DNA from: Albula goreensis
Taxonomy: Eukaryota; Chordata; Actinopteri; Albuliformes; Albulidae
Assembly: GCA_022829145.1 (NCBI GenBank)
Contig: CM040743.1
Span: 34,761,841 to 34,825,840, forward strand
Direction of reading: 5' to 3'
DNA: 64,000 nt
In this document: piece after piece, positions 13,901 to 58,876 of the stretch
Layout of the letters: the number at the start of each line of letters is the position of its first letter
Position numbering within the stretch: the stretch's first letter is position 1
The notes under the pieces: generated by a model
The model's input: the letters and a program-made list of their open reading frames with translations, nothing else
Told to the model about the DNA's origin: nothing
Database searches by the model: none
Made by a program: the position numbers and the translations under genes

Positions 13901-16900
13901 GAGAGAGCTGGAACGTTGGTCCCTTTTTTTCTGTGCTCTGCTGAGTCACACTTGGCAGTGTAACACTAAGCTAACTCATTCCAGTCAGAAATTATTATGA
14001 GTGCCCTAATTACATGAAATTTCTTTAATTATTATTTCATTCAGGTATCAGTTCCATTTGAAGTTTTTTTTTTTTTTTTTTTTCGTTATTTCATGGTTAT
14101 TATTTCCCTCTTTCTTCTATGTGTACACTTATCAAAGATTGACACACACTTTTACTTAAAAATGGATACATGAAGAAGGTGCAGCTATTAATCTGTGAAT
14201 GTGCTCCCAATGGTATATCTTCTCACAAGATAGAAAGCAATTTTAATTTAATTGAATCACGTTCAGCGTATTCATTCAAGTATCTAATAGAATCCACATC
14301 ACAACACCCATTATTATTTGACCTCCTTCCCCCTCCCACTGGAGACCTCAAACCTTTATTTGGCCATTGCCAAATCCCTTCATTTGAAACGCCATGGCAT
14401 CACCAAATACAGAGAGCTTGGCATAGTACGTACTTCCAGTTCATTTTAAGTGTCAGTTTCACTGTTCTGTAGATGCAAAGACTAAGTCTGTCTTGTTTAT
14501 GTGTATATGGTTTTTGTAGGCAGGTTTATAATGAGAACACATAAATGATACATGTCATGTGTCCTGATGTGTGGTTTCAACACATATGATTTAACTTCAG
14601 ACGTTTTTAGAATGTATTTACATACAGCATGACCATTGATTGAATTCTGGCCACACTCTATGTAAGACTTTCTGAAGACATTTGCTTATGGCAAATGTTG
14701 ATTGAAGTCTTTGTATGTGACAGCGTAGTGTCCATGCGCCATATAACAACACTATACATAGATGAGTTGCAGATTTTGCCTGATCAGCTTTTTGTGATTA
14801 ACTTTATTCCCTCAGAGTTAGGAGTATGTGTATGAATTCCACCCAACCCACAATGTGATTTGTTTCTGTGATATAAAAAATTGTACATAAATTGCTTGCA
14901 TAATTCATAGAATAAGATCAGCAGACTCTTGAAGGATAATAAAACATGTAGTGTAAACACTGAACATTAATCAGGCAAAGCGATCTTGCGACATTCTTTC
15001 CAAAAGTTTTGCAGTTGCAGGATGTAACTTACAGAAGCAGGAAATTAATTCTCTGTGTGTGGTGTATAATTCATCGTCCTGACGGTATTGGTGATCTTTG
15101 AAGTCAAAAACAAGAAAAAAAAATGCAAGATTTTCTTTAGATCTTTATTTATTACATGACGTTATTTATTTGCTTTGTAGGCTCTTGTATCCATGCCGGC
15201 TTGCCTGGAACACATATTGTCTGTTCATACAGCTTGTTTACAGAAGCATTTCAGGTGAAAGGAGCAGCCCAAGGGCACAAAGTCAGAGTCAAACTTTAGA
15301 ATTGAGCCTGTCTGGAAAGTCTAGATAAGACCAGCTCTGTGGTCTCTCTACCATATTACTTTCCTTCAAGTTAAGGACGGCTCGCAAATTGTCAAAGCAA
15401 GGACCTGTCATGCTCTGTGTTTCAGGAGGTGACTCTTCAAGAGATCCCCTCTGTCGCAGTGTTTAAGGATGGAACCTACTTTCTGTACGATGGTAAGTCG
15501 TATCCTCCTTATCTTGAGAAAGGTTTGCTTAAGTTGCACTTACTCTACTGTGTAACCATGAACAAAGCAAACATTCATCTGTGGTCTTTCGGGTTTGTCA
15601 TTTGTTTATTTTAGCACTGAAATGTTTGTCCATGCTGTTGAATAGCGCCAACTCTGACTTTGTTTTTCCAGTGATGAATTATTTATATGAACACAGCCGA
15701 TGCTGCTCTGTTCTGTTGACACATTTTACTGGGCACTTTTTTTTCCAAAGCATCTGCAGGAAGTTCACTTGTATTTTTGCACAGCGGTTCTGTAGATCTT
15801 TTATACAAGTTAATGATTAATCATGAAAATAGAGTGACCCAAGTCACTCTTTTCAAGAACAAATTGAACGCATTTTCGTGTACTGATGCTTGTTACAATA
15901 CTGTTTCTTTTTCCTTCAACCATCAATGTTACACATGTACTCAAAATATTTGATACCATTAGTTTTCAAGATGAATATCCATCACAACGCAAAAGGAGTA
16001 GTCTTGAAGGCCCAGAAAAGACCTACTGTGACTTCTGCCTACCCCCTTGGCTTGATTTATGTTATACTTTCCTCAAATCAAAAGTCAGAAGGGTGCTTTA
16101 CAGCTCAATTACATCCGCCAGCACTGTTTGGCTCATAGTCAGGCTGTTGCAGTGATATTTCTATTGCTGTGAGATGAGAACGTCTGATGTGAATGTATGG
16201 GCCAATTGGTCCGAACACCACAGAGTGTTCCAAATTCCACAGGGGCCATGCTGGCCTCAACATCTGTGTTGTTGAGAGGCTTTCCATGTGCGCTTGGGAC
16301 CTCTCGGTCAGAACATCTGCGTCCTGAGGGATTGTGGGGTATGGGAGACTCCAAATGTGGTGTGGTCCAAGACCAACTTTCCTAGAGAAGTGATATTTTA
16401 ATCCCTATATTTCCTTTTTTGAAATTTTAAATCTGTGCTTCTGTGAGAGAGTGCAGTCATTGCAATGTCTGCTGGCTGAGCCGCACAGACTGCAAACGTG
16501 CTGACTGAAATCTTCCCTTCCTGGGTGATGCTGTCACTATTTGGCAACCACTGCAGGGTTGCCAGGAACTTCCAGGATTTGATGCGAGACTATTCTTTGT
16601 GCTGAGTTTAAGTGCTTTGGCAGGCCACCTGATACATCCACCATTAACTGTCTAGCTAGCAATTGGCTTGTGTGGACCAAGGCCCAACACTAGATAAAAC
16701 CATCCTTTAAGCATTGTTAGTGTAGGGGAGAAAGGCCTGCATGTTTCCAAGATCTTTCGCTTCTGACCCACTGCGTGTGATCATATCATTGTGTGCTGGA
16801 ATTTAACCACAAACTTTAATGGAAATCTCTTAGTCAGTCTTACTCACTGGTCTGTGGTGGAGCTGTCTGGGAACAGGATCCACGGAATCGACTTATAGCG

Positions 16901-19900
16901 AATTCTATTCACTGGCTGTTCTCAGTCACAGTCACTCTTGATTGGTTCGCTGGTTTCCCTCCGTCAGCGTGACAGCACCAGCATGTTCTCCTTCATCACC
17001 TCCTCAATGTTGCCATTCCAGTGCAGGTGGGGGGGCAGACGGTAGCGGAATAGCAGGGCATCAAGGCACAACGCCACCAGGAAGGGGGTCCAGTAGTGGG
17101 CATTGGAAAGGCGCTGGGACCGGTGCAGGGCGTGCAGCACAAACTCCAGCCCGTCGCCCTCCTCTCTGAGCCGTGTGTCTGTCTGCTGGACCTGCCCGTT
17201 GTAGAAGAAAGCCTTCCGTAGCCAGAAGCTCAGCAGGAAGGGGTCTCGGCAGTGGATCCGCACCACAAACACTCCACCATCCGGGGAGTCCTCCAGGACC
17301 TGTATGCACATTGTGTCCACCTCGTCCAGCTCAGCCACGGCCCCGGCCCCAGCATCAGGGACAGCAGCAGGGAGAGGGGGAAGGCAGGCCGAGTGGCTGG
17401 ACTGATGTGGATTGGTTGGGTCGGGCTGTGTCCTGCCCTCTGATTGGCTCAGATCAGCAGACATTTTTGCCAGTTCTGGTATGGCCAACTGTCCGACAGG
17501 TTGGTCTTTGAGTACAGCTCTTGGGAGGAAAAAAACAAAGGTTTATTAAATACCTCACATCCTGCACAGTTTTGTTCATATTTATGTTCTGGGCTCTTAT
17601 ACTTATTTTCTTCCATATTGTGAAACTGAGCTCCCTGTAATTTCTTTTTCCAGTGGGTATACAGGGAAGCATTTATGGGCATTATTATAAATTTTGTGGC
17701 TATTTACAAAGGGCTGCACCTCTTTCCCGATAAGGACCCTGTGTGTCAGAAGGAGACCCATAGAGACAAATGGAAACTAAAAGAACACAAGTCTGCTATT
17801 TGCATGTGGCAATTGCCTAGAGTCTATTAAGCTATAAAAATAGAATGGTAGAGCTGTAAAAATCGAAGAGAAATTGGTTTAGGAGCTAGAAGAGAAAAAT
17901 ACCTGGTTTCTACTATGTAAAGGTTTTATTTTTCTAAGATTTGTGTTGACGTTTTTACTCCTTTCTCTATTAATGTTGGTAGTACAGTTTATTTTAGGTT
18001 AGGACTCACAATGATGACATCGTAATGTCAGATTTATGTTGTTGAAAATCCAGTTTGTGGTTTGGGTGTAATGTATGAATTACATTAGCTACCCGTTTAA
18101 TGTTTAAGAATTTATATTGACATGCACCATTTCCCAGAAAGCAGCATAACACTAGTTTGCGCTGTACATAGTCTTCTTTAAAGTAAAGCTCAGCAAACTC
18201 GGCTTGGACTTTTTAGCCTTGTTGGTGAATAAGTTACGGAATATCTGAGGGTAATGACTGTATTTTGCTGAAAGTTGGCAGCCCATTGATTCCGAGGGTT
18301 GATGTGTATCAAAATTGTGGCTGAGTCCCGAGTTTCATATCCACAGCCTGTCTTGCCAAACTGGCTCATCTGGTTTCATTTCAAATGCAGCTGATCTTGA
18401 CTCATTGTTCAAATACAGCTATGAACGTTACAAGAAAACTGAAGTTGATGTGAAGCCTGACCACTTTGATAATTTTTTTTTTTTTTTTTTTTTACATAGA
18501 CATTAAACATACAGTGTATTAAGTTGTACGTTTGAAACTTCAAGTTTCTGTGGTACAGAATTGTTGAAAAAGTGACACAGTGCCATCGATGACATTACGA
18601 ATATGATGCATGAGTAAGGCATAGTGTTAAAAGAAAAACTTGAGCTCAATGAAAACACTTGTGAATTAGTTTCAGCATATGTTATTCTGCCTTGCTCCAT
18701 GAAAAACACAAATCCACTTACCCACCGGTGCACACACACCCCCAAATTCTGCAGTTTCTCTGTGTATTCAGGACAATATTTTTACTAGTCTTAGATTAAC
18801 AAAATGCAGCTCTTTGGAAAGGACAGATTAGATTAGTCTCAATGAGACTACGTGAAAGTGCAGTCACATCTCTCGTAATCTATGATTTATGCTGGTTTTC
18901 CATGTGCTCATGAGAGCAAGGAGAAAGGACTCAAAATAGTGAGTCAGCATTTTGCAGCGAGCCTCATTGAAATCCCCCATATCCCCTCTGAGTACTTACA
19001 ACTCCTGCTGGAGCTGGAGGTGTCCTGCTAACGGCCTCATACGCTCTGCCTGCTCTGGGTGAAGCGTTTTCCATGCACAGGACTTCACAAACACCAGGTG
19101 CTCCAGAAATACCTGCTGGAATGGGGTCACATTTGAATAGCTCCAGGTATGCTGCGAGCTCTCTCCTGTTCACGCCGTTTCCCTGAAGCTTGCAGCGCAG
19201 CTGTGTAATATTACCTGTGCAGAGGGTGAACGTGTCAGGTAGCCTGCCTCTTTCTCTCTCTCTCTCTCTCTCTCTCGCTCTATCACACAAACTTTCTCTC
19301 TCTCTTTCTCACTTACTCTCTCTCATCACTCAAACTCTCTCTCTCTTTCTCAATTATCCTCCTCCCTTTTGGTCAATAATAATCTTCCACTGTGTACTTA
19401 AAGCACACAGCCCCATAAGTTCAGATCAAGTGGAGAACTGGACCTCATGAGGAAGATAAGCAGAACCAGGTCTGGCTGTTTCTGGAAGATACCCTTATCC
19501 ATTCTGGTAGTTTGCATGGGTACTTACTGAAGAAAGTCTGGTAATATGCAATGCTCAGAGGCACAGTAGCACCATCTGGGAATCAAACCTGCCACGTCTT
19601 GGTTATGAGCCCAGTTTCTTCACCTCTGTGCTGCACTGATATCTGTGGGCTGTAGACAGCTGGCAGTGGAAGTTATTAGTTATTGTGTATGCTATATTTT
19701 TAGTTACTGTATAGCCTTCTGTATGTGGAACTTAACTGTTACCATGTCTTTAAGGTTTAAGTGCAAGCTTGCCCATGATGCTTTTCTTTCATATTCTCTC
19801 AAGGTTTCATTTTCTGTACAATCTACAAAAAGGCCAAAACTCCCAACCCCGATGAAGAGAAACATCAAAATGAAATGCGCTGCCATCTTTGCGAGTCACG

Positions 19901-22900
19901 TTTCAGCATATCTCTTTGTATTTCGATATCTCAGAAGTGCTAGTGAAATTTATTTCCACTCACTGCATGACATGAGAGACCACAGCATCTCCTGCCACCT
20001 GGATTATAAAAACTCATTATACTTTGTTTTCTTGGTGCAAATGAGAGAATTCAGTATCAGCTGTCAGTCAGTGCCATGAGAGTGACTGAAATAGATGAGA
20101 AGCCATATTGGTTCATATTGTGTTGGCAGTATATGTGGTATAGATGTCTTTGTTTCCCTGTTCCACACAGCCCAGTCACTTCTTATTTCAAAGTTAGCTT
20201 ATTGCTTTAAACTGGGTATTCTGTATGTCAATGTAGGATTAAAAAGATAGATAATTTAAGAAATACATATTTTACAAAAATGGCATATACTTCTTTTATA
20301 TGTAAAATTATGGGTTATACATATTTCCATATCAATTTTACATTTTTACATCTGCATGAAGGCCTGCGTTACTGTAATCCCTATTCTGTTAGTTCCATGG
20401 CACATGCTTTTTAATGATTGTGTACATGTTCACCTGATACTTTTTTGTTGTAGCATTGTAATAGCAACAGAATGGCAGAATATGCTATAATGTGTGCTGC
20501 AAGGCTAAATGAATGGCATTCTTAATTTTGCATTGACCAGAGTATTATGAGTCCTTGTAGTCTATAACTCTTGTGCCATCTTGCTTTCATCAGTGGACAA
20601 AACAGACAGTGATAGTAATTAGCGGGATGTTTTGTTTTGTTAAGAGTGACGCACTGTAGTCTCTTTAAAGTAACCACAGAGCTTTGTCCTTAAATTTGAA
20701 TAACAGATTTGCATGTTTCCAGTTCACAATATAAGTTATGGTGCAAACTGCAATTTGCTGGAGAAATATAAGCTGGTATTTACATGTCTACAAACAATAA
20801 TGTTTTATTCAAATCAATAGGAGGTAAATTCAAGGAAAGTTCTTTGCTTATTTGACCCATACACATTTAAGAATAAATATATTGAAGAAGGCCCCATTTT
20901 GGGGTGGATGAAAATAAATGTAGAATTCTTTTTTCTGTGGGTAGATTACATGGTCCGTTTATAATGTGGGTGATTAGCAGGGCCAAATCATACTGCATGG
21001 CTTGAGCATAGCTCTCACGTACACATGTTTCACGCCATTTAACATGTTATTATGCATTTATGTACTTGACAAGCGCTCTCATCTAGAGCGACTTAAAAGG
21101 CTGTTAATGCAAGAAACATTGAATTCAATCACTGGAGCTGCTGCAACATAAATACAGACCATTTGCAACGCACAGAACCACTCGCAATGCGTAGATGAAA
21201 CGCCATGCTTAATCTATGCACAATCAGTGCCAAAAAAAGGAATAAGCATCTCAGTGTTAGCTGATTATCCATAAGAGCACTATACAAAACAATCCATACT
21301 GCGTGCAACAATCAACTAAAAACGATCTATAAGAGCATCTGTATCTTGTATAAAACTAAGGAGTTCACCCTTTGCCTTTAGGAGAACTTTAGTGCTTCTT
21401 GGCATGCTGATATACAAGTTCTGAATAGTTTCTTGTGAGAATTTGGACCATTCTTTGAGAAAGAAGTCTTCCAGTAATCTGAGAGAGAGAATGAGGAAAC
21501 CTGTTTCACACTCTGTGCTCCAGAATGTCCCACAATGGTTCAATAACATTTTGATCTGCTGATTTAGGAAGATGTAATCATCCTGATAATTCAAAACCAG
21601 TCGTGAGTCATTTTATCAGTTTGCATGGAGCTGGGGACGTTATTGTCTAGCGTCACGAGGTAACAATGTTTGCGCAATAGGGTGCGCCTGGTCGCCTGAT
21701 GACTTTATATTCTGTGGCCTTAATTTTATCCTGTAGGGTAGTAATGAATCCATTGTTATTTATCCATATGCTATTCATACAGTTGCCCATTCCATAACAC
21801 AGCTAAGACCTATTATGTTTAACTGCTGGGAACAGGAAATGTGGTTTGCGGCTTTCTTTGGTTTTCTCCAGACATGTATGATATGTGAAAAGAGTGGGAA
21901 AAAAATGCCTCATGAGGCCATATTCCCCTGCTGGGAAGTTTTTTTGTCATTCTTGTGGATTTGCCTTGGGTACAACTGAATGGAAACCCTACAGTAAATA
22001 TCTGCTTCGTGAAGTGCGGCCACTGTTTTCAGATTTTTTTCATCAACTACCCTATTAAGTCTGTCTTTCCCTGTCAGTGAACCTCATCTTGGGACCACAG
22101 CTCTTCTGTTTAGTTTTTCCTTGAGAGGTAGAGGTTGTCATTATTTTCAACACTATTCCTCTGGACACATTAAATAATTTGACTGTTTTGATGGCTGACA
22201 CACCTGCAAGTTGGATACCAACTGTTTGAAAATGCACATCCTTTTCATTTCATATTTCTATCACTTTCTCTCTATCCCCTGTGTATGCTCTCTCATTATT
22301 TGCATTATCTTTCAACTTTGCTTGAATTATACTGTGTTTTCTGTGTCTAAAAATAGTCTGTTACCGTGCCGATAAGTCCTGTTTGGCCTGACACGTCTTG
22401 CGCAGTAATAAAGTAATTTTTAAGCAGACAGTGAGCAAGCTCTGTTAAAAAAATGTGACCCAGCCAACATGAGGGAACATGTTTTACTTTGCATAGATAT
22501 GATATCATATTACAACTGCAATGGAAAAAAAAAAAATTGGTGGCTGTGTGAGTAATGACAATTAATGGCACACAGCTGTCATCTCTGTTTAAAGTACATT
22601 TGTCATATGCAAAACAGCAAAAGCTGTGTGTGACCTGCCATGTTTTCATTCACAAAAACAGCTGTGATGTTACAAACCTGTTCACGCAAACGTATTACGT
22701 AAGATGGGGAGAGATCTTGTTTGACCAAAATAATTTTTTTTTTTTGTGTTCTCTTCGGTGGACTTTTGCAATGTTGAAAACCTGACTTTTGCAATGTTGA
22801 AATCCTATGTGCACAATTTGAAGGTAAGATGTATGATAGGTCAGGAGAAATGCCGTTCAACAGAAATAACACATACTTGTTTGTATGTAATATAGTTGAC

Positions 22901-25900
22901 AAGGTGAAATCAGCAATGAGCGGGGTTATGGAAAAACTATGCCTGTGTTGGCTTATGGTGCAATTCTCTTTTTTTCCAGAATACCGGGATGGCGAGCTGT
23001 CTTCTTGGGTGAACAAGGAGCGCTTCCTGGGGTACCTCGCGATTGATGGGTTCACTCTGTATGAACTGGGGGAAACAGGTAGGGTTACCGCTCAAACATG
23101 CACTGACACACACGCACACTTCCAGAATGCACAAATAGACACCTTACTCTGGCGAACTGCTGGACACATTACCTGAATATCTTTGTCCCTGATTGTCCTG
23201 TGTATTAAGCACCACTTCTGTACTCTACGAACTGGGCTTAAGTGCTTTCAGTACCACTTTTTAGGCATCCGGAATGTTTTGATCCCATCATAGATCATTT
23301 TATGAACACTGCATTGTACTGTTTGTACTGCATTGTACACTGACTTTGAGGAAACTTTGCTGTGAAGTTTCTGATCGACCATCAGCCATCTCAAAATCTT
23401 ATTCTTCCTAACAGTGTTGTTAATATCATTTTTTATTTTTAACCCGCATTAGTCATTGTGCAAAAATTATTTATGAGCTGCTGCTGGCTGAGTGCCTGTT
23501 CTTTATCTTGTGGCTCACAGCTTCCTGCGAGCCAGTGTGTGATCTATTTCAATCCGTGGTTTTGGTTTGCAGTGAACAGAAGCCATTGTGCACAGTCGCG
23601 TCCATGCAGATGAAGGGAATAGGGTGAAACGTGAGAAAGGTTGAAATAGCATTTTTCACAGTCACCGTGATCTGGAAATACACAGTCATTGAGGCCAAGC
23701 GCTCCTATGAAAGAGGAGAGGGATGCAAAAACTGCAGGTGTTGGGTGGGTAAGGGGTCACCTGTTGTGTCACAAAGGCAAAGCAGGGTGGAGATATCAAA
23801 TGTGGAGCACTACGGACGGCTCACTCCGGAACCTCAACATTTAATGTTTTTGTAAAACAAATAGCTGACAGATTATTTGCTCTAACCAAAAATTTGTCTT
23901 ACATTTTTTTTTGTTTGTTATGTAACCGAGTGTTGGACATTCTACAGTTGTGAAATGTACCTGTTTTTGCACTTGTTCAGTACATTACATTAGATTACAG
24001 TCATTCAGCAGACACTCTTATCCAGAGTGACTTACAAAATGGGAGAACATAAGTGCATCTGCCTGATTAATGTGAGCAATAGAGCCAGATCTGGCTAACC
24101 ACATTTCTAGACCAGCAAAAATATATGCAGCTATCACTACAGCACCAATCCAAGATGACTGTGCTACTCCAAGTTATAATATGCCTGAATACAAACTCAT
24201 GAATACAACAATACATTGCAATACAATACAATAGAAAAACAGCCCAAAAACAAAATTATATAATGACAGTTTGGACACAGATGCAGTCTGAAGAAGTACG
24301 TCTCAGGCTATGAATTAATCCACAGAGATGGCTCAGTTAAGGAGAGAGATTGGTAATGCCCCACCACTCAGCTGAAGGTTAAAATTGTGGGAGGGATGCC
24401 ATAGCCCTGTAGATTGCCAGGTTTACTTGCTGATCAAACATTATGTAACTGGAACACATGTTCGCTCGAATCAGTGCAGTGTATCTGCAGACTGTACTAG
24501 ACCCAAAACCCAAACCATCCCTTGCACAATGGGTATAAGTTTGTCTCCTGCTCTTTTGTACTGTTGAATAATATACAGGTTTTTCCTCAAATGCGGTGTT
24601 GTCGTGGTGTTTTTTTCATGGCCTTTTGATGGGTAGGGACAAGGAATGTTGGTCTGGAAGAGCAGTAATTAACACTGCGTGGTTTTAGCTGGGACTTTGA
24701 GTCCGTTTTGTTTTTCTGCTTCACTGCCCTGTTTGGCAGCTTGTTCAAAGAATTCAGCCTTGGATGATTTGTAGAGTCCTCAGGCCAACATCTTAGTACT
24801 GCCTCAACCTACAATGTGCTGGAGGGCAACCGGAATATTCCAGAACATTCCACTCCTCTTAAATCACTGGAAATTACCTGGGGCTGCCGAGTGCGACCAA
24901 TCCATTAATTAAGCAGCTAACTCCTAACTCCTCATATGACAGCCGTGTTTCTGAAGGGCAGAGGAGTTCAGAAGAAGTCCCTCCGAATTCTGTCTTGTTT
25001 GTTCAACAGAGCAAATCGGCTGCTTAATTATCCCATCCCCTGGGAAAGAGGGACAGTGAGTATGTAAACCATGATTGGTGCGCATCTTTCTGGAGAGCAT
25101 CTCTGCAGTGAACTTTGAACTTTTTCAGCGATTCTTTTCCCTTCATTTTTGACATACCGAATAAGACGAGGAACTAGGAAGTTTTTGCCCAGAGGAAAGG
25201 ACATGGAATTATAATTTTAATAGCAATTTAAAATGACCTTGACAGTGAGAAACTCATGCAACTTTGCAATTTAATTCAAACTAAATTAAAACAGGAAAAA
25301 TAAGTTAGCCTGCCCTGTCGCCCCAGTGTACAGATCAAACTGAAGGATTTATTCTGTTGTTCCATCCCTCTGCCACTAGAGGGTGTACTTTGGTTATTGC
25401 AGGGACTGTTGCATTGAAGTAGGGGTAGGTCTATCAGAAAGCAGTGCCATGGAAACTGAATAAGCTGCATGTCTGTCCTCCTCTTTGTAAAATTAAGAAA
25501 GGCCACAAAAATATGATGTGTCACCAAAACTGTGAGTTGTATAAAGCCAGAAACACTATAGATCTCCATATGTTACTCAAGTAAGTTGTGATGTTCTTCC
25601 TTATCACAGGAAAATTGGTGGCCATAGCAGTTATTGATGAGAAGAATCCAACAGAAGAAAGCACCAGGTATATTTTTAACCTCATGCTATACCCCATCCC
25701 CCATCCTTCTGCAGTTAATGTCCATATATGTGTGGATGGTGCTTGCCATGCAAGCAATACAGACTGCTCTGCATAAGGCTGGCTTCTAAGAAAATGAAGC
25801 AAGTTAGCAGCATAAATGTTATGGAAAAAAAATATGGAAATGCCTTGGGTTTAAGTACAAGCTTGCATCCTCGGTGCATTCACGAACTCTTGACACATGA

Positions 25901-31900: not shown

Positions 31901-32506
31901 AAATGTAGCGTTGCAGCCATTTGTGTATCACTCATTGGCAGTGGCCTGGACCAGATACAAAAGTGCCAGTCTACATGATGCAACAGTGCCTTAATAGGAA
32001 GAGTCTATGCAGGAGCAGCAGCCCCTAAAACACGTTTTTTGATGTGATATTCTGTGCTTATTTTGACCAGGCTCAAGGCGGAGATAGCATGTTTCAGCGT
32101 GCCAAGAGAGTGGCGTACAATGCCAGATCCACTGTAATGGTAAGTTGAACTGAAGAAAATGTCACAGCCAACAAAAGCTAACCCTAAACATTTGCGGAAC
32201 TTTAAAATTAGACTCCGGCCTTTGTTTGCCCTGTTTTGAGAGATGCATATTAAGGAGAGAATGTCCTTGATTAGCGAGGTACCCTTGAGTGTCGAAAACG
32301 TAGCGTTTGATGGAAGAAAGACTGTCTTGGTGACTCATATTGAGAGCTCCCCCAAGTGTGCCTGTCCTTACCTCATCCTGCCTTCATCTCTGCAGCCACC
32401 AACACTCACACCCAATGGAGGGCTGGAGGTGCTCCTCCCCCCCAAACACACTCACATACACACACACCAACTCCATCTGTCCCCTCATTGTTCAGTCTGG
32501 CTGCTG

Positions 32507-32545
<39 letters not shown>

Positions 32546-32650
32546 CTGTCCATCCCCCTGTGGTCCTCTCTGATTGCTGACACACACACACACACGCACA
32601 TGCACACACACAAACACTGTCCATCCCCCTGTGGTCCTCTCTGATTGCTG

Positions 32651-32683
<33 letters not shown>

Positions 32684-32859
32684 CTGTCCATCCCCCTGTG
32701 GTCCTCTCTGATTGCTGACACACACACACACAGACACACACACACGCACGCACATGCACACACACAAACACTGTCCATCGCCCTGTGGTCCTCTCTGATT
32801 GCTGGCACGCACAGACACACACACACAGTCCAGCCCCCTGTGGTCCTCTCTGATCGTTG

Positions 32860-32938
<79 letters not shown>

Positions 32939-35522
32939 CCATCCCCCTGTGGTCCTCTCTGATCGTTGTCACACACACACACACACACACACGCACGCAC
33001 GCATGCACGCACTGTCCGTCCCCCTGTGGTCCTCTCTGAATGCTGTCACACGCACACACACACACAGTCCATCCCCCTGTGGTCCTCTCTGATCGTTGTC
33101 ACACACACACATACGCACGCACGCACACACTGTCCGTCCCCCTGTGGTCCTCTCTGAATGCTGTCACACGCGCACACACACACACCTGTCTGTGCCCTGC
33201 TGCGCTCTCTGGACTGCTGATTTGGCTGCACTTCAGATCCAGTGCTGTCACTCCACACACCCGTCCGTCTGGGCGATCAGCGATCAGAGGCCCCTCTGAG
33301 GAGCAGTGTCAGGGGACAGCAGCCTTGATTTGCTGTAGGACAGGGTTATGCAGTTGCCAGGGAAACAAACCCGGGGCCCAAACACTACAATTCAGATCTT
33401 AGCGGGGCACTGCCAATGTATCCTGGGGCGAGGTTCCTGATGGGAATTTCTACAGTGATGTTTGGCTGCATAGATGGATAATTTGATAAACTCATGTTGC
33501 CCTTATATAACACGGTAACACAGTGCGATGGAGAACTGGCAAGTGAGCCTTCATTTGGATGAGAAAATGTTGAAGCAGTCAATTCTAAAAATAAAAATGA
33601 AGAATTAGTACATAGAGGAGGAGTACAGAGAACCTAGTTTCACGGTATAGCTATTGTCCTTATGCCAGTAGAAATTGTAGTGGGAGATAAATATTGCCAG
33701 ACCAAACATAATATGGAACGGTGTGAATGATCCTGTGGGAGAGTGCATTTTACCAGTTTACTCATGGCTGTCTGCATTCATTTCAAAAGATACTATACGT
33801 TTCTCAAGGCCTTCTGCTGTACAGCTTTTCTCAATGCCTTCCACCTTTCAAAACACGGTAACTAGCCTCCTCAATCAGCTGTTGTTTGTATAATAGAGTC
33901 CACAAAAGCGAGAAATTGGATTGCAATTTTGCTGTCAAGGATATGTTGTTTCCTGTTTGGTCAAACTAAGGCTGCTGGCCTTGAAAAGAAAAGAGTAAGA
34001 GAGAGGGGGGGGGATGGAAAAGAGCGGGAGGCATGGCCGTTGCAGCCATGAGGGCCGCGGAGGACATGTCCCCCGCACTTTTCTGGATCATCATCTAACC
34101 CAACCTACGCCCTCACAGCTGCCTTGCTAACGCACCATCTGCATTGGGATTCGAACCTGCAGCGCCGGGTCGAGGGTTTGGAAGCTAAAACTTGTTGTTC
34201 TTGTGAGGTCACCACCCGACTATTATTGAAGTCCAAGAGCTGCCAATATCTCTCAAATTAAATATCCTGTTTTCACATTTTAAACACACACTTCTGCTTA
34301 CTCGTTTTGCAAACCTGCAGTCTACCAATACATATTTACATACATTATAGGCCTATGTGAGTATAGTAATTTGGCAGCACTGTATTTGTCTCGGTGAACT
34401 GAGTGGTGAAATATGAAAATCTCACAATTTATCAGCGAACAGTAAGCTACTCACAGCTTCGTCCCCCCACTTTAAGAATGCTTGATATGCCCCTGGTGGA
34501 AGGTCAGGGATAAACAGAGCTTTTATTTGAGTTGTCGGATTGAGGGTGCACCTAACCACCTGGCCAGGATTGTTCTCACATCACTCTTGAAACAGTGCAA
34601 AGCGTCGCCATAATGACAGAGCAAATATGTGAACTTTTACTAAAAGTTGGTACAACTCATAAAAAATTTAATTTGGCAGGCCCTTTCTTTAAAAAAAAAT
34701 CTATATTTACTGTCCAGCCTGTCAGATCTCAAGTGGGAGCCACTTTTCTGGAACCAAAGTAGGCCATCAAAAGGACAAAGCCACCCAGAGCCAAAGCCTG
34801 TGATCCACTGATCTGTATGTTATTCGGGTGGCTGAGGGCATTCACAGGGTGGCTATAAGCCAACAAGTGATTAACAAGAAGAATGTGATTCATGCTGGAT
34901 TACACTGGACTTAAGGGTAAATCGGTCTTTAAACATGATTTCTCAATGTACATTATGATGATTATAGATGACAGTACCTTTTAGTGAAATATATAAGAAT
35001 GGCAATGTTTCTATATTCGATTTTCTACCCTTGCATAGATAACTAAAAGGTAAATCATGGGTTCTACTTTTTTTAGTTTGAAGGGGTGCCAAGACCGCTG
35101 GGAGTGCTTTGGTCTGTCCAGCAATTGAAAGACATATTTCCTCACTGTCTCTTTTTTCTCTCTCTCTCTGTCTCTCGTGCTCATGCCAGTCGGTGTTCCG
35201 CAGCTCCCCGCTGCTGGGCTGCTTCCTGTTCGGCCTGCCCCTGGGTATCATCAGCCTCATGTGCTACGGCATCTGCACCGCCGAGTCCGACGACGGTGTC
35301 GAGGAGGCGGAGGTCCTCAAGACGGAGGAGCTCGCTGAGAACCGGGTCAATGAGGAGGAGGAGGAGGGTGTCAATGAAGGGTGGAGAGGGGGTACAGAGC
35401 TTCAGGGCTCTGGGGGGGAAGAAGAAGAAGAAGAGGAGGAGGAGGAGGAAGAGGAGGAAGGGGAAGAAGAGGGAGAGCAGCAGCATGAAGAGAAGAGCTC
35501 ACTGGACAAGAAAGTCGATTAA
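1887..35522 (+). CDS. TMX3: TMX3, thioredoxin-related transmembrane protein 3 (protein disulfide-isomerase family), 16 exons
   Basis: A type I membrane protein of the ER that catalyses thiol-disulfide exchange in the lumen. Coding exons: 1887-1920, 2187-2241, 3244-3283, 3850-3973, 6968-7013, 10465-10545, 12519-12618, 12954-13031, 15426-15492, 22980-23078, 25610-25667, 25960-26013, 28439-28495, 30784-30913, 32071-32139, 35190-35522. All have AG/GT borders and join in frame to 1425 nt (474 residues; the human protein is slightly shorter at about 454). Visible parts: signal peptide of about 1-24; thioredoxin domain with W48-C49-G-Y-C52 and cis-Pro in the GYPT motif at about 94-97; redox-inactive thioredoxin-like regions of about 128-350; membrane span of about 372-394; Glu-rich tail; KKVD at 471-474. 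The start ATG has A at -3 and G at +4. The family call rests on near-continuous match to TMX3 landmarks ([42 protein letters not shown]). Oddities: CGYC instead of the usual CGHC, and an unusually long poly-Glu tail. An unrelated gene lies inside intron 9 on the other strand. Confidence 0.97.
1921..2186 (+). other. TMX3: TMX3 intron 1
   Basis: 266 bases from donor GTAATA to acceptor TATTTTCAG. Nothing else seen. Confidence 0.85.
2187..2241 (+). CDS. TMX3: TMX3 exon 2 (rest of signal peptide, mature N terminus)
   Basis: Encodes [18 protein letters not shown]. The hydrophobic LLNIGLLLA forms the signal core, and VEDLD begins the mature protein as in other TMX3 proteins. Flanked by TTTCAG and GTAAGT. 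Confidence 0.93.
2242..3243 (+). other. TMX3: TMX3 intron 2 with a poly-A run and a dispersed repeat
   Basis: 1002 bases. Holds a run of about 20 A near 2528 and an interspersed repeat at about 2772-3010 (listed separately). No other gene seen. Confidence 0.8.
2772..3010 (+). repeat. Interspersed repeat of the 'GGCCATTC(C/G)GCCCAA' type
   Basis: The segment contains ATAAGTACATATGATGACA, GGCCATTCCGCCCAA, CTCTGCCTCAACCACATAACT and TTATTCCAAGTATTGACAA in order. This matches my recollection of a dispersed repeat that is common in several non-teleost and early-branching ray-finned fish genomes. Family name and ends are not certain. Confidence 0.55.
3244..3283 (+). CDS. TMX3: TMX3 exon 3
   Basis: Encodes (T)[13 protein letters not shown], the first strand of the thioredoxin fold leading into the active site. 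Acceptor GGTGCAG, donor GTAAGT. Ends in phase 0. Confidence 0.95.
3341..3479. mobile_element. Fold-back MITE (about 139 bp, nearly full-length palindrome) in TMX3 intron 3
   Basis: The left arm begins GATGCGTTCCAATAC and continues through CTCATCTCCTCCATTCGTCTCC in pieces. The right arm ends GTATTGGAACGCACC and carries the reverse complements GGAGACGAATGGAGGAGAT and GGAGATGA. The arms are separated by only about 35 bases. This is typical of a small non-autonomous DNA transposon. No clear target-site duplication was found, so the superfamily is left open. Confidence 0.8.
3850..3973 (+). CDS. TMX3: TMX3 exon 4 (active-site exon)
   Basis: Encodes [20 protein letters not shown] through [12 protein letters not shown], with the redox motif C49-G-Y-C52. 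The usual TMX3/PDI motif is C-G-H-C, so tyrosine replaces histidine here. Acceptor TGTTGCAG, donor GTAAGT. Confidence 0.97.
3974..6967 (+). other. TMX3: TMX3 intron 4
   Basis: 2994 bases. Holds a CTCF-like motif near 4627-4649, a possible degenerate tRNA-SINE head at about 5505-5600 (AGTGGGAAAGGAGCAGGCTTG) and a CpG-containing non-repetitive block at about 5650-5930. Another box-B-like string (GGGTTTGATCCGAG) lies near 6370. No exon seen. Confidence 0.7.
4627..4649 (-). promoter_or_regulatory. CTCF-like motif
   Basis: On the - strand this reads TCACTGGCCAGCAGGGGTCA, close to the vertebrate CTCF core TGGCCACCAGGGGGCGC. Motif match only. Confidence 0.35.
6968..7013 (+). CDS. TMX3: TMX3 exon 5 (cis-proline exon)
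   Basis: Encodes [15 protein letters not shown]. The GYPTIK motif supplies the conserved cis-proline opposite the active site. Acceptor CTTCTAG, donor GTGAGT. Confidence 0.97.
7241..7310 (+). repeat. TG-rich microsatellite
   Basis: Interrupted TGTGTG/GTGCGC/TATGTA alternating purine-pyrimidine tract. Confidence 0.8.
7537..7747. mobile_element. Dispersed non-autonomous element, copy 1 (imperfect terminal inverted repeats)
   Basis: The left end reads TGTTAGCCATCCCTGTTCCTGG. The right end, reverse-complemented, reads GGGGTAGCTAAACCTGGTCCTGG, so the ends form an imperfect inverted repeat. The interior has the CAGGTGAGGTGATTGAATGG / TGATCAATTAAGTGCTGAG string found in common fish dispersed elements. 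Related fragments lie near 36340 and 48795. Ends are approximate. Confidence 0.55.
10173..10310 (+). mobile_element. tRNA-derived SINE copy
   Basis: Shows a pol III box B (GGTTTGAGTCC at 10209-10219) preceded by a degenerate box-A region. It is followed by the typical fish SINE body ATTGCTTCAG...AACTGTGTAAATGGATA...TGTGTAAG. It is truncated before the usual tail. Confidence 0.7.
10465..10545 (+). CDS. TMX3: TMX3 exon 6
   Basis: Encodes [20 protein letters not shown] and FANRVA, the end of the catalytic thioredoxin domain. Highly characteristic of TMX3. Acceptor CTTTCAG, donor GTAAGG. Confidence 0.97.
10546..12518 (+). other. TMX3: TMX3 intron 6
   Basis: 1973 bases, mostly unremarkable. A CTCF-like motif lies at 12343-12360. 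The stretch 11866-11945 contains a short imperfect inverted repeat (GTTCATTTAACACTGACAGTG versus CACTGTTAGTGTTAAAT). No exon seen. Confidence 0.65.
12343..12360 (+). promoter_or_regulatory. CTCF-like motif
   Basis: TGGCCACTAGGTGGTGCC is close to the vertebrate CTCF core (CCACTAGGTGGCGC). Motif match only. Confidence 0.4.
12519..12618 (+). CDS. TMX3: TMX3 exon 7
   Basis: Encodes [20 protein letters not shown] through GGESPLK, the start of the second, non-catalytic thioredoxin-like region. Acceptor CTCTCCAG, donor GTAAGC. Ends in phase 0. Confidence 0.97.
12619..12953 (+). other. TMX3: TMX3 intron 7
   Basis: 335 bases. Acceptor CATCCCGTAG. Nothing else seen. Confidence 0.85.
12954..13031 (+). 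CDS. TMX3: TMX3 exon 8
   Basis: Encodes [20 protein letters not shown] then EDILPK. 78 nt, phase 0 at both ends, so skipping it would keep the frame. Donor GTGAGT. Confidence 0.96.
13032..15425 (+). other. TMX3: TMX3 intron 8
   Basis: 2394 bases. Contains a GC-rich, CpG-bearing block at about 13600-13830 and a poly-T run at about 14068-14084. No exon seen. Confidence 0.65.
15426..15492 (+). CDS. TMX3: TMX3 exon 9
   Basis: Encodes [20 protein letters not shown] and YD. The [10 protein letters not shown] string is the cis-Pro-like strand of the second thioredoxin fold. Acceptor TGTTTCAG, donor GTAAGT. Confidence 0.96.
16964..17519 (-). CDS. Last coding exon of an unidentified gene nested in TMX3 intron 9 (antisense)
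   Basis: On the - strand an acceptor TTTTTTTTCCTCCCAAG precedes 17519. The frame then stays open for 184 codons to TGA (16966-16964). The protein text looks real: a polar, Pro/Ala-rich linker (from [10 protein letters not shown] to about DAGAGAV), then a folded-looking C-terminal part with [40 protein letters not shown] and [19 protein letters not shown] content is well above the surrounding intron, as for a coding exon. It joins in frame to the exon at 19000-19115. I do not recognise the family. A recent pseudogene is possible, but no stop or frameshift is visible. Confidence 0.65.
18472..18493 (+). repeat. Poly-T run
   Basis: About 20 consecutive T, within the intron between the two nested exons. 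Confidence 0.8.
19000..19115 (-). CDS. Upstream exon of the nested antisense gene
   Basis: On the - strand this begins after acceptor TGACCCCATTCCAG and ends at donor GTAAGT (18999-18994). The 116 nt encode [20 protein letters not shown] then [18 protein letters not shown] plus TT. The TT joins with the first base of the exon at 17519 to give Leu and continues the open frame without a stop. A further candidate exon end with donor GTAATA lies at 19215, which would leave a 99-base intron ending in the same phase, but its acceptor side is a GA repeat and is doubtful. The start of the gene was not found. Confidence 0.55.
19250..19345 (+). repeat. CT microsatellite
   Basis: Several blocks of CTCTCT interrupted by short spacers, immediately upstream (- strand sense) of the nested exon region. 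Confidence 0.9.
19490..19640 (-). mobile_element. tRNA-derived SINE copy, reversed
   Basis: The - strand shows box B GGTTTGATTCC (19589-19579) with the preceding AACCAAGACGTGGCA region and a following CAGATGGTGCTACTGTGCC...TGAGCA...GGTA-like body, as in other fish tRNA SINEs. Confidence 0.55.
21310..22260 (-). pseudogene. Tc1-like (Tc1/mariner) transposon relic
   Basis: Pieces of a Tc1-type transposase appear in the right order on the - strand. The N-terminal DNA-binding part has [20 protein letters not shown] followed by [11 protein letters not shown] (about 22237-22058). A middle piece is near 21880-21840 ([15 protein letters not shown]). The C-terminal part has [20 protein letters not shown] then LLKAKGE (about 21460-21365). 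Frameshifts and stops separate the parts, so the element is dead. Terminal inverted repeats were not located, so the ends are approximate. Confidence 0.9.
22980..23078 (+). CDS. TMX3: TMX3 exon 10
   Basis: Encodes [20 protein letters not shown] then [13 protein letters not shown]. The DGELSSWVN string is typical of TMX3. Acceptor TTTTTTCCAG, donor GTAGGG. Confidence 0.97.
23982..24390 (-). mobile_element. Dispersed fish repeat with 'GACACTCTTATCCAGAGTGAC' type end
   Basis: Begins ACATTACATTAGATTACAG...TTCAGCAGACACTCTTATCC, the reversed tail shared by many fish SINE/LINE-like elements. It is followed by a body containing GATGCAGTCTGAAGAAGTACG. The right end is approximate. Confidence 0.6.
25371..25390 (+). 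promoter_or_regulatory. CTCF-like motif
   Basis: TGCCACTAGAGGGTGTACTT matches the CCACTAGAGGGCGC form of the CTCF core except near the end. Motif match only. Confidence 0.35.
25610..25667 (+). CDS. TMX3: TMX3 exon 11
   Basis: Encodes [19 protein letters not shown], the first strand of the third thioredoxin-like region. Acceptor TTATCACAG, donor GTATAT. Confidence 0.96.
25668..25959 (+). other. TMX3: TMX3 intron 11
   Basis: 292 bases, acceptor CTCCCTCAG. Nothing else seen. Confidence 0.85.
25960..26013 (+). CDS. TMX3: TMX3 exon 12
   Basis: Encodes (R)[17 protein letters not shown]. 54 nt, a multiple of three. Donor GTAAGT. Confidence 0.96.
26680..27005 (+). repeat. CA/CATA-rich degenerate microsatellite
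   Basis: About 325 bases dominated by ACACAC, ACATAC and CATGCATG. Long open frames here (His/Thr-rich or Cys/Val-rich) are simple-sequence artefacts. Confidence 0.9.
27696..27750 (+). repeat. GA-rich microsatellite
   Basis: Blocks of GAGAGAGA interrupted by GGGA and GACA. Confidence 0.85.
28439..28495 (+). CDS. TMX3: TMX3 exon 13
   Basis: Encodes (R)[18 protein letters not shown], one of the most conserved TMX3 strings. Acceptor TTTCATAG, donor GTGAGT. Confidence 0.97.
28496..30783 (+). other. TMX3: TMX3 intron 13
   Basis: 2288 bases. Contains a purine-rich stretch (28670-28725) and a long TG/TGCG array (28931-29370). No exon seen in 29371-30783. Confidence 0.7.
28931..29370 (+). repeat. 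Long TG / TGCG alternating purine-pyrimidine array
   Basis: A pure TG run of about 44 bases begins at 28931. About 400 bases of GTGTGTGCG-rich sequence with few interruptions follow. Six-frame open frames of 120-220 codons here are repeat artefacts. Confidence 0.95.
30784..30913 (+). CDS. TMX3: TMX3 exon 14
   Basis: Encodes [20 protein letters not shown] through [10 protein letters not shown]. Contains the sequon N-T-S in VLNTSN, a possible N-glycosylation site. Acceptor CATCCCCAG, donor GTCAGT (weaker than the other donors). Ends in phase 0. Confidence 0.97.
30914..32070 (+). other. TMX3: TMX3 intron 14
   Basis: 1157 bases. Contains a short fish repeat tail at 31855-31912. No exon seen. 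A stop codon comes soon if the weak donor is read through. Confidence 0.75.
31855..31912 (+). repeat. SINE-type 3' tail fragment
   Basis: Reads CTAAGTCACTTTAGATAAGA then GCATCTGCT and AAATGTA, the widespread fish SINE/LINE tail. The head is missing. Confidence 0.7.
32071..32139 (+). CDS. TMX3: TMX3 exon 15
   Basis: Encodes [20 protein letters not shown] then TVM, the luminal stalk before the membrane span. 69 nt, phase 0 at both ends. Acceptor TTGACCAG, donor GTAAGT. Confidence 0.97.
32476..33225 (+). repeat. Composite minisatellite: unique 35-base core alternating with CA runs
   Basis: The core (C)TGTCCATCCCCCTGTGGTCC then TCTCTGATTGCTG starts at about 32547, 32619, 32685, 32771, 32827, 32935, 33013, 33066 and 33130. 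Each copy is separated by CACACA runs of variable length; the longest, about 32861-32935, is uninterrupted. Degenerate copies flank the array at about 32476 and 33186. The last four copies alternate between two core subtypes (ending ATCGTTGT and AATGCTGT), giving a two-unit higher-order repeat. The spacing is uneven and core plus spacer evolve together, so this is not a CRISPR array. Confidence 0.95.
34111..34433 (-). mobile_element. SINE-like dispersed repeat, copy 1
   Basis: Aligns along its length with 60191-60526. Shared strings include AAATATCCTRTTTTCACATTT-like sequence, AACACACACTTCTGCTT, TTTTGCAAACCTGC, ACATATTTACAT, CATTATAGGCCTAT and AATCTCACAATTTAT. A pol III box-B-like GGTTCGAATCCC is read on the - strand near 34156. 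Confidence 0.85.
35190..35522 (+). CDS. TMX3: TMX3 exon 16 (membrane span, acidic tail, ER retrieval signal, stop)
   Basis: Encodes [20 protein letters not shown] then [12 protein letters not shown]: the end of the luminal stalk and the membrane span (about 372-394). The cytosolic tail follows, with about 14 consecutive Glu at about 441-454, and ends LDKKVD before TAA at 35520-35522. KKVD fits the KKXX ER-retrieval rule; human TMX3 ends KKKD as I recall it. The poly-Glu run comes from a GAA/GAG repeat. Acceptor CATGCCAG. Confidence 0.97.
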   Translation, partial: SVFRSSPLLGCFLFGLPLGIISLMCYGICTAESDDGVEEAEVLKTEELAENRVNEEEEEGVNEGWRGGTELQGSGGEEEEEEEEEEEEEEGEEEGEQQHEEKSSLDKKVD

Positions 35523-57110: not shown

Positions 57111-57887
57111 CTAAAAGCAGTACATAAACAGCCCCAAAATGGCATAACACAAGCAAATCAACATACCCTGAGGTGATTGACGGTTTCCGTTTGAGAACTT
57201 GTGGTTGCACTCCTTAGAGTTCAGAGGTGGACTCGAGTCTCTCTGAGGATGGCACTGTGCGTAGTGGCTCCTGGACCGCGAGGGGAAGGGCCGAAGGAAC
57301 TTTTCACGCGTGAGGTTACGTATCTCCTTGAGGAGGTCAGCGCTGATGGCGTACGTGTTGTCCGGGTCGTACGCGCTCCCGTGGCCGCTGTTGAAGTCGT
57401 AGTGCTGTGTGATGTAGATCTTGTCGATGCTGCCATACGGTGTACGCCTGACGATGATGCGGTCCTTGTTGTTCTGGTCGCGGGAATCCAGATTCTTGGA
57501 ATTGCGGAATTCGTCCGAGACGTAATCTGGTAACTTTTGGCCCTCTGGCAGGTTTTTGTCATCAAACAGGTTGCCGACAGTGTAGTAGCCATACCCTCTT
57601 GGTAAGTTCCGGATTGATGGGAGGAGGGCCTCTTTGTTTCCATAGTAATGGAATCCAAATGCACCCTCCTTGGGGTCCAGCTTTGGTTGCACGTTGTCAT
57701 TGTTGTCAAAAGTGATGTATTCACGGGCGAACCAGTACAAAAGATTCAGTCCGTGTCGGGGGAAATTGTGGCCAAAGTCTTTCTCCCCAAGATCTCGAAT
57801 TTTTTTCAGAGTGTCTTCAGGGAGGCCTGAGACAGAGGCCAGGCTCAGAGCCAGCAGGATGCTGCACAAAAAACTCATATGCCCCAT
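57111..57887 (-). CDS. Putative secreted protein of unknown function (258 residues as a single open frame)
   Basis: The protein has a clear signal peptide, MGHMSFLCSILLALSLASVS, with cleavage likely around G21/L22. A compact domain follows, with features such as GEKDFGHNFPRHGLNLLYWF, DPKEGAFGFHYYGN, YGYYTVGNLFDD, IDKIYITQHYD and NTYAISADLLKEIRNLT. There is a sequon at N191 and only two cysteines (C212, C227) before the last 17 residues. Codon use and length argue for a real gene. I recall similar uncharacterised secreted proteins in fish, but no function. An acceptor TGTTACAG ends at 57895, seven bases before the ATG, so a 5' non-coding exon is expected upstream. The C terminus is uncertain. 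The frame ends in a hydrophobic tail (242-258) that could be a GPI signal, but a strong donor GTATGT at 57166 could instead splice after residue 240. Confidence 0.75.
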   Translation of the reverse strand: MGHMSFLCSILLALSLASVSGLPEDTLKKIRDLGEKDFGHNFPRHGLNLLYWFAREYITFDNNDNVQPKLDPKEGAFGFHYYGNKEALLPSIRNLPRGYGYYTVGNLFDDKNLPEGQKLPDYVSDEFRNSKNLDSRDQNNKDRIIVRRTPYGSIDKIYITQHYDFNSGHGSAYDPDNTYAISADLLKEIRNLTREKFLRPFPSRSRSHYAQCHPQRDSSPPLNSKECNHKFSNGNRQSPQGMLICLCYAILGLFMYCF

Positions 57888-57894
57888 AATGCAC
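57888..57894 (-). other. Splice acceptor and 5' UTR remainder of the secreted-protein exon
   Basis: The - strand reads CCCCTGTTACAG|GTGCATT directly before ATG. It implies a separate 5' exon. Confidence 0.6.
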
Positions 57895-58876
57895 CTGTAA
57901 CAGGGGTTGTAAAAGAGGGGAAAAGTTGTAAAAACTACTTTCAGTTAGCTTGAATTAACACACAATTGTTACAAATATTCAGGGCTCTGTTTTAATAAAA
58001 TAAACTGGATCTGTGGCACGATGATAAAATAATTGGTGTGTCATTCATTTGAAAGCCTTGATTTGTGTGATATCTGTGTCAGGGAAAAATCAATTTTATT
58101 GCAGTTTGGAATATAACCATTGCAGCCACATAAATGTCACACTCTTCTTGTATGAAACTGATGCCACTAAGTTTTGAAAAAAAAAAAAAAAAAAAAAATC
58201 AAGAAAGCAATTACTCAAGGCAATGCACTTTATTTTGACAACTGGGGAATAAGTCAACCATTTAACAAGAGCCACTAATGCAGTTTTTATATACAGTTGT
58301 TGTCCTGTTTATACCTTGTCCCAAACCATCTTTGAACCCTCAGATCGTAACCCCTGATAGTAAATCTGGTTTTGGATTTATTGTTTTGTGCAGTATATTC
58401 ATTTAAACACTGAGTACATTACAATGCAAAACATTCAGGATATACTTCAGTTGAACTGAATTTAAATGGGGCAACAGTTTCCTGTTTTTTCAAGTCAGGG
58501 CATGCCAGGCAACGTCTCTTGAGAATCAAAAGCCCTTAAAATTGGTGAGCCCCACCTCCAGGTGGAAGTACTTATTGCCTTTTGGGTAGAAAAATATATG
58601 CCAGACAGCCTTAAAATGTCATAAAGACATGTCTACCTAGAACAATGTACAACAGCTCTCTATTTTTAAACTGAAAAATTCAAAGGAAACACATTTGTCG
58701 TTAGGCGTTGCCTGCATGTTTCGTTGATATATACATTTATGTGCATTTAAAAAAAACTCACTGAGTAAACCACAGAAATTGTAGTCTAAGTAATGATTCG
58801 ATATGACGTAGCTTTGTGAAGTAACTGGATGCCATATGGAAAGATAAAATAACAGAATATACAGATTTTGCCTTAC
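57895..58876. other. Putative intron upstream of the secreted-protein exon
   Basis: Contains a poly-A run of about 22 bases at 58178-58199 and no coding feature. It would be the first intron of the - strand gene if the candidate exons at 58.9-59.3 kb belong to it. Confidence 0.35.

What the first reader, a model, noticed from the sequence alone, without database searches (positions are those of the whole stretch)
16964..19115. An unrecognised protein-coding gene nested antisense inside TMX3 intron 9
Two - strand exons with good splice signals (acceptor TGACCCCATTCCAG at 19116, donor GTAAGT at 18999, acceptor TTCCTCCCAAG at 17520) join in frame to give 223 C-terminal residues. The last part ([20 protein letters not shown] ... 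[17 protein letters not shown]) looks like a folded domain. I could not assign a family. The higher GC content against an AT-rich intron also points to coding constraint. This is the best candidate in the window for something undescribed.
Basis: partly seen in the sequence, partly recalled or inferred. Interest (0 to 1): 0.75.

Follow-up and report, generated by a model that had tools for sequence, protein, structure and literature searches.

The report
Hidden fish gene inside TMX3 intron
On the opposite strand of one intron of a fish TMX3-like gene lies a real, selected protein-coding stretch of no recognised family; a second copy sits in the same intron of the gene's ancient duplicate, but the start of the gene is not found and it may be partly broken.

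Summary
The main exon is real coding sequence. The genome (932 Mb, 208 contigs) holds a second copy of its last ~106 codons on contig C16, 60% identical in protein, on the opposite strand in the same intron of a second, collinear TMX3-like gene. The nested arrangement is therefore older than that duplication. The copies differ at 42 of 106 residues against 56.0 ± 3.2 expected from the same changes placed at random (0 of 2000 reach 42); dN 0.26, dS 0.90. Similarity stops just past the shared stop codon. AlphaFold2 gives a fairly confident alpha/beta domain (pLDDT 81.6, pTM 0.78). No Pfam or PDB sequence relative was found. I read it as a new member of a known kind, an opposite-strand nested gene, encoding an undescribed protein. 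Whether it is still functional is open.

The parts
16964..17519 (-). Terminal exon: open frame of 185 codons including the stop at 16966-16964 (its first base completes the codon begun in the upstream exon); linker 17519-17333, then the folded domain
   Evidence: Open frame; acceptor rank 4 of 531 AGs; codon score +6.6 bits for the linker (other forward frames -26.9, -4.2) and +32.2 for the domain (-49.6, -40.8)
16967..17332 (-). C-terminal alpha/beta domain (122 aa), strand-strand-helix-strand-strand-helix plus last strand; the last 106 residues are the ones aligned to the second copy
   Evidence: Second copy at C16:8652874-8653197, 60% aa identity; the DNA of the whole exon finds the same two places only; fewer aa changes than random placement, dN 0.26/dS 0.90; AF2 pLDDT 81.6, pTM 0.78
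19000..19115 (-).
   Evidence: Joins in frame; donor rank 14 of 381; codon score +9.1; found at this place only; acceptor only 80 of 531; no counterpart in the C16 copy
19000..19214 (-). Alternative, longer form of the upstream exon; 19214-19123 coding-like in a different frame ([30 protein letters not shown])
   Evidence: Acceptor 5th of 531; codon score +7.5 for 19214-19123; in a scan of both strands for exon-like stretches of 150 nt or more, the one hit not explained by the terminal exon, a host exon, the 57-kb ORF, their antisense shadows or the repeat relic
15420..15497 (+). Host (TMX3-like) exon on one side of the intron
   Evidence: tblastx match to the C16 copy
22979..23080 (+). Host (TMX3-like) exon on the other side of the intron
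   Evidence: tblastx match to the C16 copy
18364..18419 (-). 56-nt segment conserved in the same order and orientation in the C16 intron (71% nt, E 5e-4); nature unknown, not shown to be an exon
   Evidence: the only hit of the opposite-strand control has E 0.5; it overlaps a short tandem repeat

Best explanation
The finding marks the 3' part of a genuine protein-coding gene that lies on the opposite strand inside one intron of a teleost TMX3-like gene. It was already there before that gene was duplicated, most likely in the teleost whole-genome duplication, and both duplicates kept the domain in the same intron. It most likely works as an ordinary independent transcription unit read against its host. 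Its mRNA ends in a large terminal exon, and its protein carries at its C-terminus a compact ~120-residue alpha/beta domain behind a Pro/Ser/His-rich linker, probably a protein-protein interaction or dimerisation module. Shown: coding constraint between the two copies, nested position in both copies, predicted fold, no match in Pfam or in PDB sequences. Inferred: transcription, splicing of 18999 to 17519, age of the duplication, molecular role. Unresolved: the 5' exons, and whether the window copy is intact.
For: Second copy at C16, E 1.7e-38 by protein, E 6.3e-45 by DNA. The C16 region is collinear with the window in inverted orientation (19 blastn blocks, the nested one included, between the window and 40 kb of C16), and the copy lies between the equivalents of host exons 15420-15497 and 22979-23080. 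42 of 106 residues differ against 56.0 ± 3.2 with the same changes placed at random, 0 of 2000 as low; dN 0.259, dS 0.903. Host exons used as control: dN 0.123, dS 1.267, 7 of 10 exon pairs pooled, the other 3 left out because the aligned stretch ran into a stop. Of the six frames only the proposed one has no stop in either copy and it has the fewest residue changes (42 against 50-57). GC at codon position 3 is 0.81 and 0.82 in the copies. The aligned block ends 12 bases past the stop; the 3' flank is 41% identical in a gapped global alignment (90 of 217 columns). AF2 fold pLDDT 81.6, pTM 0.78. Codon score +32 bits for the domain.
Against: The C16 copy has a one-base frame break just before the conserved domain, no trace of the window's upstream exon, and no strong acceptor before the domain (best score 0.2 between 19650 and 19870 of the joined C16 stretch), so it looks like a relic. 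The window copy has a possible frame break in the upstream exon and no identified start. The third-position excess of changes alone is only borderline (25, 26, 42; P 0.053). With two sequences and no outgroup the constraint cannot be placed on either branch. No other eukaryote genome and no RNA could be searched.
Confidence: 0.75

Rival explanations
1. Dying gene: the nested gene was functional for a long time after the duplication, but both copies in this species are now decaying (possible frame break in the upstream exon of the window copy; frame break and lost 5' part at C16).
For: C16 lacks the window's upstream exon and a strong acceptor and has a one-base break. In the window, 19214-19123 is coding-like in a frame that does not continue into the frame of the rest of the exon. 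No 5' exon was established.
Against: The window terminal exon keeps 185 open codons, a strong acceptor and high GC3. Both apparent breaks lie at runs of C, where sequencing errors are common (recalled). Missing 5' exons may be short or lie beyond the intron.
Confidence: 0.3
2. Small intronless gene: transcription starts inside the intron near 17800 and translation within the last exon (first in-frame ATG at 17464; at C16 an ATG just upstream of the domain), and the upstream exon is unrelated.
For: Only the domain and about 20 residues before it align between the copies. A weak collinear conserved segment with an ATGCAAAT octamer lies 5' of the ORF in both copies (E 0.069). C16 has an ATG in a GCCATGG context at the start of the block.
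Against: The open frame begins at a strong acceptor (rank 4 of 531), and the upstream exon has coding-like codon use and joins in frame. The C16 reading frame breaks between that ATG and the domain.
Confidence: 0.15
3. Not a gene: a conserved regulatory element or transposon-derived ORF in the intron.
For: Other sequence in this intron is repeat-derived.
Against: Only two copies of the domain found in the genome, both in the same intron of duplicate genes. The changes spare amino acids in one frame and the block ends at the stop.
Confidence: 0.05

Closest known systems
LRRTM genes nested on the opposite strand of an alpha-catenin intron (PMC3933685, abstract read)
   Same: Protein-coding gene on the opposite strand of a host intron, an arrangement carried by several duplicated host genes, with losses of nested gene or host in some lineages
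   Different: LRRTM encodes a known LRR membrane protein and the pairs are present in most jawed vertebrates; here the protein is unknown, the 5' end is missing and the second copy has a frame break
Q4D6Q6, a kinetoplastid-specific protein of solved structure (6xyb)
   Different: 8% identity; at the level the tool calls common for models without a clear match; no sequence relation detected
LAGE3/Pcc1 (KEOPS subunit; 6gwj)
   Different: Z tied with many unrelated folds; no Pfam Pcc1 match, and the genome's own Pcc1 match lies elsewhere, on C1

Membership tests
Opposite-strand nested intronic protein-coding gene | Lies wholly within one intron of a host gene on the other strand | tested here: met
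   Between host exons 15420-15497 and 22979-23080, in both copies; holds for the part found, the 5' end being unknown
Opposite-strand nested intronic protein-coding gene | Coding sequence under protein-level selection | tested here: met
   dN 0.26, dS 0.90; 42 aa changes against 56.0 ± 3.2; two sequences only
Opposite-strand nested intronic protein-coding gene | Complete ORF with start codon | tested here: inconclusive
   Exon scans found no acceptable 5' exon
Opposite-strand nested intronic protein-coding gene | Its own spliced transcript | not testable with these tools
   No RNA reads or transcript collections on hand
Any Pfam-A family | Profile match above the curated cut-off | tested here: not met
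   0 families at E <= 10 for the joined exons, the domain and the C16 domain; single sequences, so distant relatives could be missed
LAGE3/Pcc1 (KEOPS) | Pcc1 profile PF09341 | tested here: not met
   No Pfam match; the profile finds another locus in this genome
LAGE3/Pcc1 (KEOPS) | Pcc1 fold | tested here: inconclusive
Transposable element | Many dispersed copies in the genome | tested here: not met
   Terminal exon: 2 places; upstream exon: 1 place

The most novel reading that the evidence does not exclude
An intact, expressed gene of an undescribed vertebrate protein family, nested antisense in TMX3 since before the teleost genome duplication, with a distinct C-terminal alpha/beta domain and possibly regulating its host by antisense transcription.
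Probability: 0.35. Interest if true: 0.55.

Novelty: new member of a known kind. Interest (0 to 1): 0.4.

Why it matters
If intact elsewhere, it adds an uncharacterised, selected protein family for which Pfam gave no match, at a fixed place (one TMX3 intron) where it is easy to trace across vertebrates. It would also give a case for asking whether nested antisense genes are kept or lost with their host after genome duplication. If both copies are decaying, it is a well-placed example of gene loss.

Tried and rejected
Exon 21582-21369 (DDYIFLNQQ...KAKG). It passed the exon scan and joins in phase to acceptor 19214; 2 of 200 shuffles of 19250-22970 gave such an exon in that phase. A genome search at E <= 10 gave 149 matches (150 of 323 candidates scored, so a lower bound), 3 at this locus and 146 elsewhere, 28 of those at E <= 0.001. 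All 146 begin inside this piece, at 26-59% identity, many with stops. With an open frame at L017 containing LEEWSNIS..TVQNLYNSIPRKQNAGLKAKGG this looks like the end of a Tc1/mariner transposase. The label is from memory: Pfam gave no match and no full element was examined. Rejected as an exon.

Codon score -4.1, no other copy (which covered only its last 26 residues), no support; not adopted. Donor at 22203 with a 15-residue start: best donor score in the intron, but its only partner was the rejected repeat piece.

Upstream exons in the C16 copy: no counterpart of the window's upstream exon. The scan of the C16 intron did list two exon-like stretches with codon scores of 15-16, at C16:8648577-8648819 and C16:8651922-8652155. 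Neither shows in the tblastx comparison with the window intron; the first has one other weak match in the genome (C3:34997384, E 0.069), and the search of the second did not complete. They were not worked into a gene model, so a different 5' end for the C16 copy is not excluded. Conserved 56-nt segment 18419-18364: in one frame both copies read LYL(N/D)(N/D)ES, but its acceptor is weak (-0.54) and I could build no convincing exon.

Full report
Observation. The terminal exon 17519-16964 begins at one of the best acceptors of the intron (4th of 531 AGs) and the donor at 18999 ranks 14th of 381 GTs (scores from recalled splice frequencies). GC rises to 0.61 over the exon against 0.36 just upstream and 0.47 just downstream. 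Scored with recalled human codon usage, the domain part reaches +32 bits against -50 and -41 in the other two forward frames and -20 to -38 on the other strand.

Chance or gene. The decisive comparison came from the organism's own genome (932 Mb, 208 contigs). Forty kilobases around the C16 place were fetched. They are collinear, in inverted orientation, with the window (19 blastn blocks, the nested one included), and the copy lies between the equivalents of the host exons at 15420-15497 and 22979-23080. The domain therefore sits on the opposite strand of the same intron in two duplicate host genes, so the arrangement is older than the duplication. Host exons differ by dS 1.27, dN 0.12 (7 of 10 exon pairs pooled; the other 3 were dropped because the aligned stretch ran into a stop); the nested domain by dS 0.90, dN 0.26. 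That is compatible with one event.

Selection. Over 106 ungapped codons the copies differ at 42 residues. Placing the same base changes at random gives 56.0 ± 3.2, and 0 of 2000 trials reached 42. Of six frames only the proposed one has no stop in either copy, and it has the fewest residue changes (50-57 in the others). Changes by codon position are 25, 26 and 42, on its own only borderline (P 0.053). Under the same random placement 15% of trials have no stop, so the open frame alone is weak evidence. GC3 is 0.81 and 0.82. The similarity ends 12 bases after the stop codon and the 3' flank is 41% identical in a gapped global alignment. I take this together as good evidence of coding constraint. 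It does not show on which branch the constraint acted, nor that both copies are constrained today.

The acceptor chosen for the upstream exon ranks 80th of 531; the one 99 bases upstream (19214) is 5th in the list, and 19214-19123 has coding-like codon use in a different frame. No start codon or 5' exon could be established. The most convincing candidate, 21582-21369, was the only other stretch upstream in this intron to pass the long-exon scan and turned out to have 146 further matches in the genome at E <= 10, 28 of them at E <= 0.001; one of them reads like a Tc1-type transposase end (recalled label). It is a repeat relic. In the C16 copy the window's upstream exon is not detectable, no strong acceptor precedes the domain, and a base is missing just before the domain, so that copy is probably a relic. 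Against this, the scan lists two other exon-like stretches in the C16 intron with no window counterpart; one has only a weak second match in the genome, the other could not be searched, and a different 5' end there is not excluded.

Mechanism. Most likely an ordinary independent gene read against its host, with a large terminal exon encoding an interaction or dimerisation domain. The transcription and the role are inferred; only the coding constraint, the position and the predicted fold rest on results. Effects on the host by antisense transcription are possible and untested.

Comparison and novelty. Opposite-strand nested genes carried by several duplicated hosts are known: LRRTM genes in alpha-catenin introns of most jawed vertebrates, with lineage-specific losses of nested gene or host (PMC3933685, abstract read). 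This is a new member of that kind, with a protein for which Pfam gave no match. Three full-text searches listed no paper on a gene nested in TMX3, judged by the listings. It may well be annotated as an uncharacterised locus in fish genome releases, which could not be checked here.

Noticed in passing
window 21369-21582, minus strand: Relic that looks like the end of a Tc1/mariner transposase (recalled label), with at least 146 further matches in the genome at E <= 10 (28 at E <= 0.001); it mimics an exon of the nested gene.
   Followed up: yes
window 18364-18419 and 17784-17822: Two short segments conserved in order and orientation in the C16 intron (E 5e-4 and 0.069); the second contains the octamer ATGCAAAT. 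Possible regulatory elements of host or nested gene.
   Followed up: partly
L005:5577-5819 and L005:8922-9155 (C16:8648577-8648819 and C16:8651922-8652155): Two exon-like open stretches in the C16 host intron, same strand as the nested copy, codon scores 15-16, without a window counterpart.
   Followed up: partly
window 57111-57944, minus strand: 277-codon stop-to-stop open frame with an apparent signal peptide (MGHMSFLCSILLALSLASVSG...), high exon scores and no significant Pfam match (best E 0.26); probably a secreted protein gene.
   Followed up: partly
window 23995-24047, minus strand: UnaL2 LINE 3' element (Rfam RF00436, 58 bits).
   Followed up: no
window 32446-33185: Minisatellite-like array of CA repeats alternating with a conserved unit containing CCCCCTGTGGTCCTCTCTGA.
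   Followed up: no
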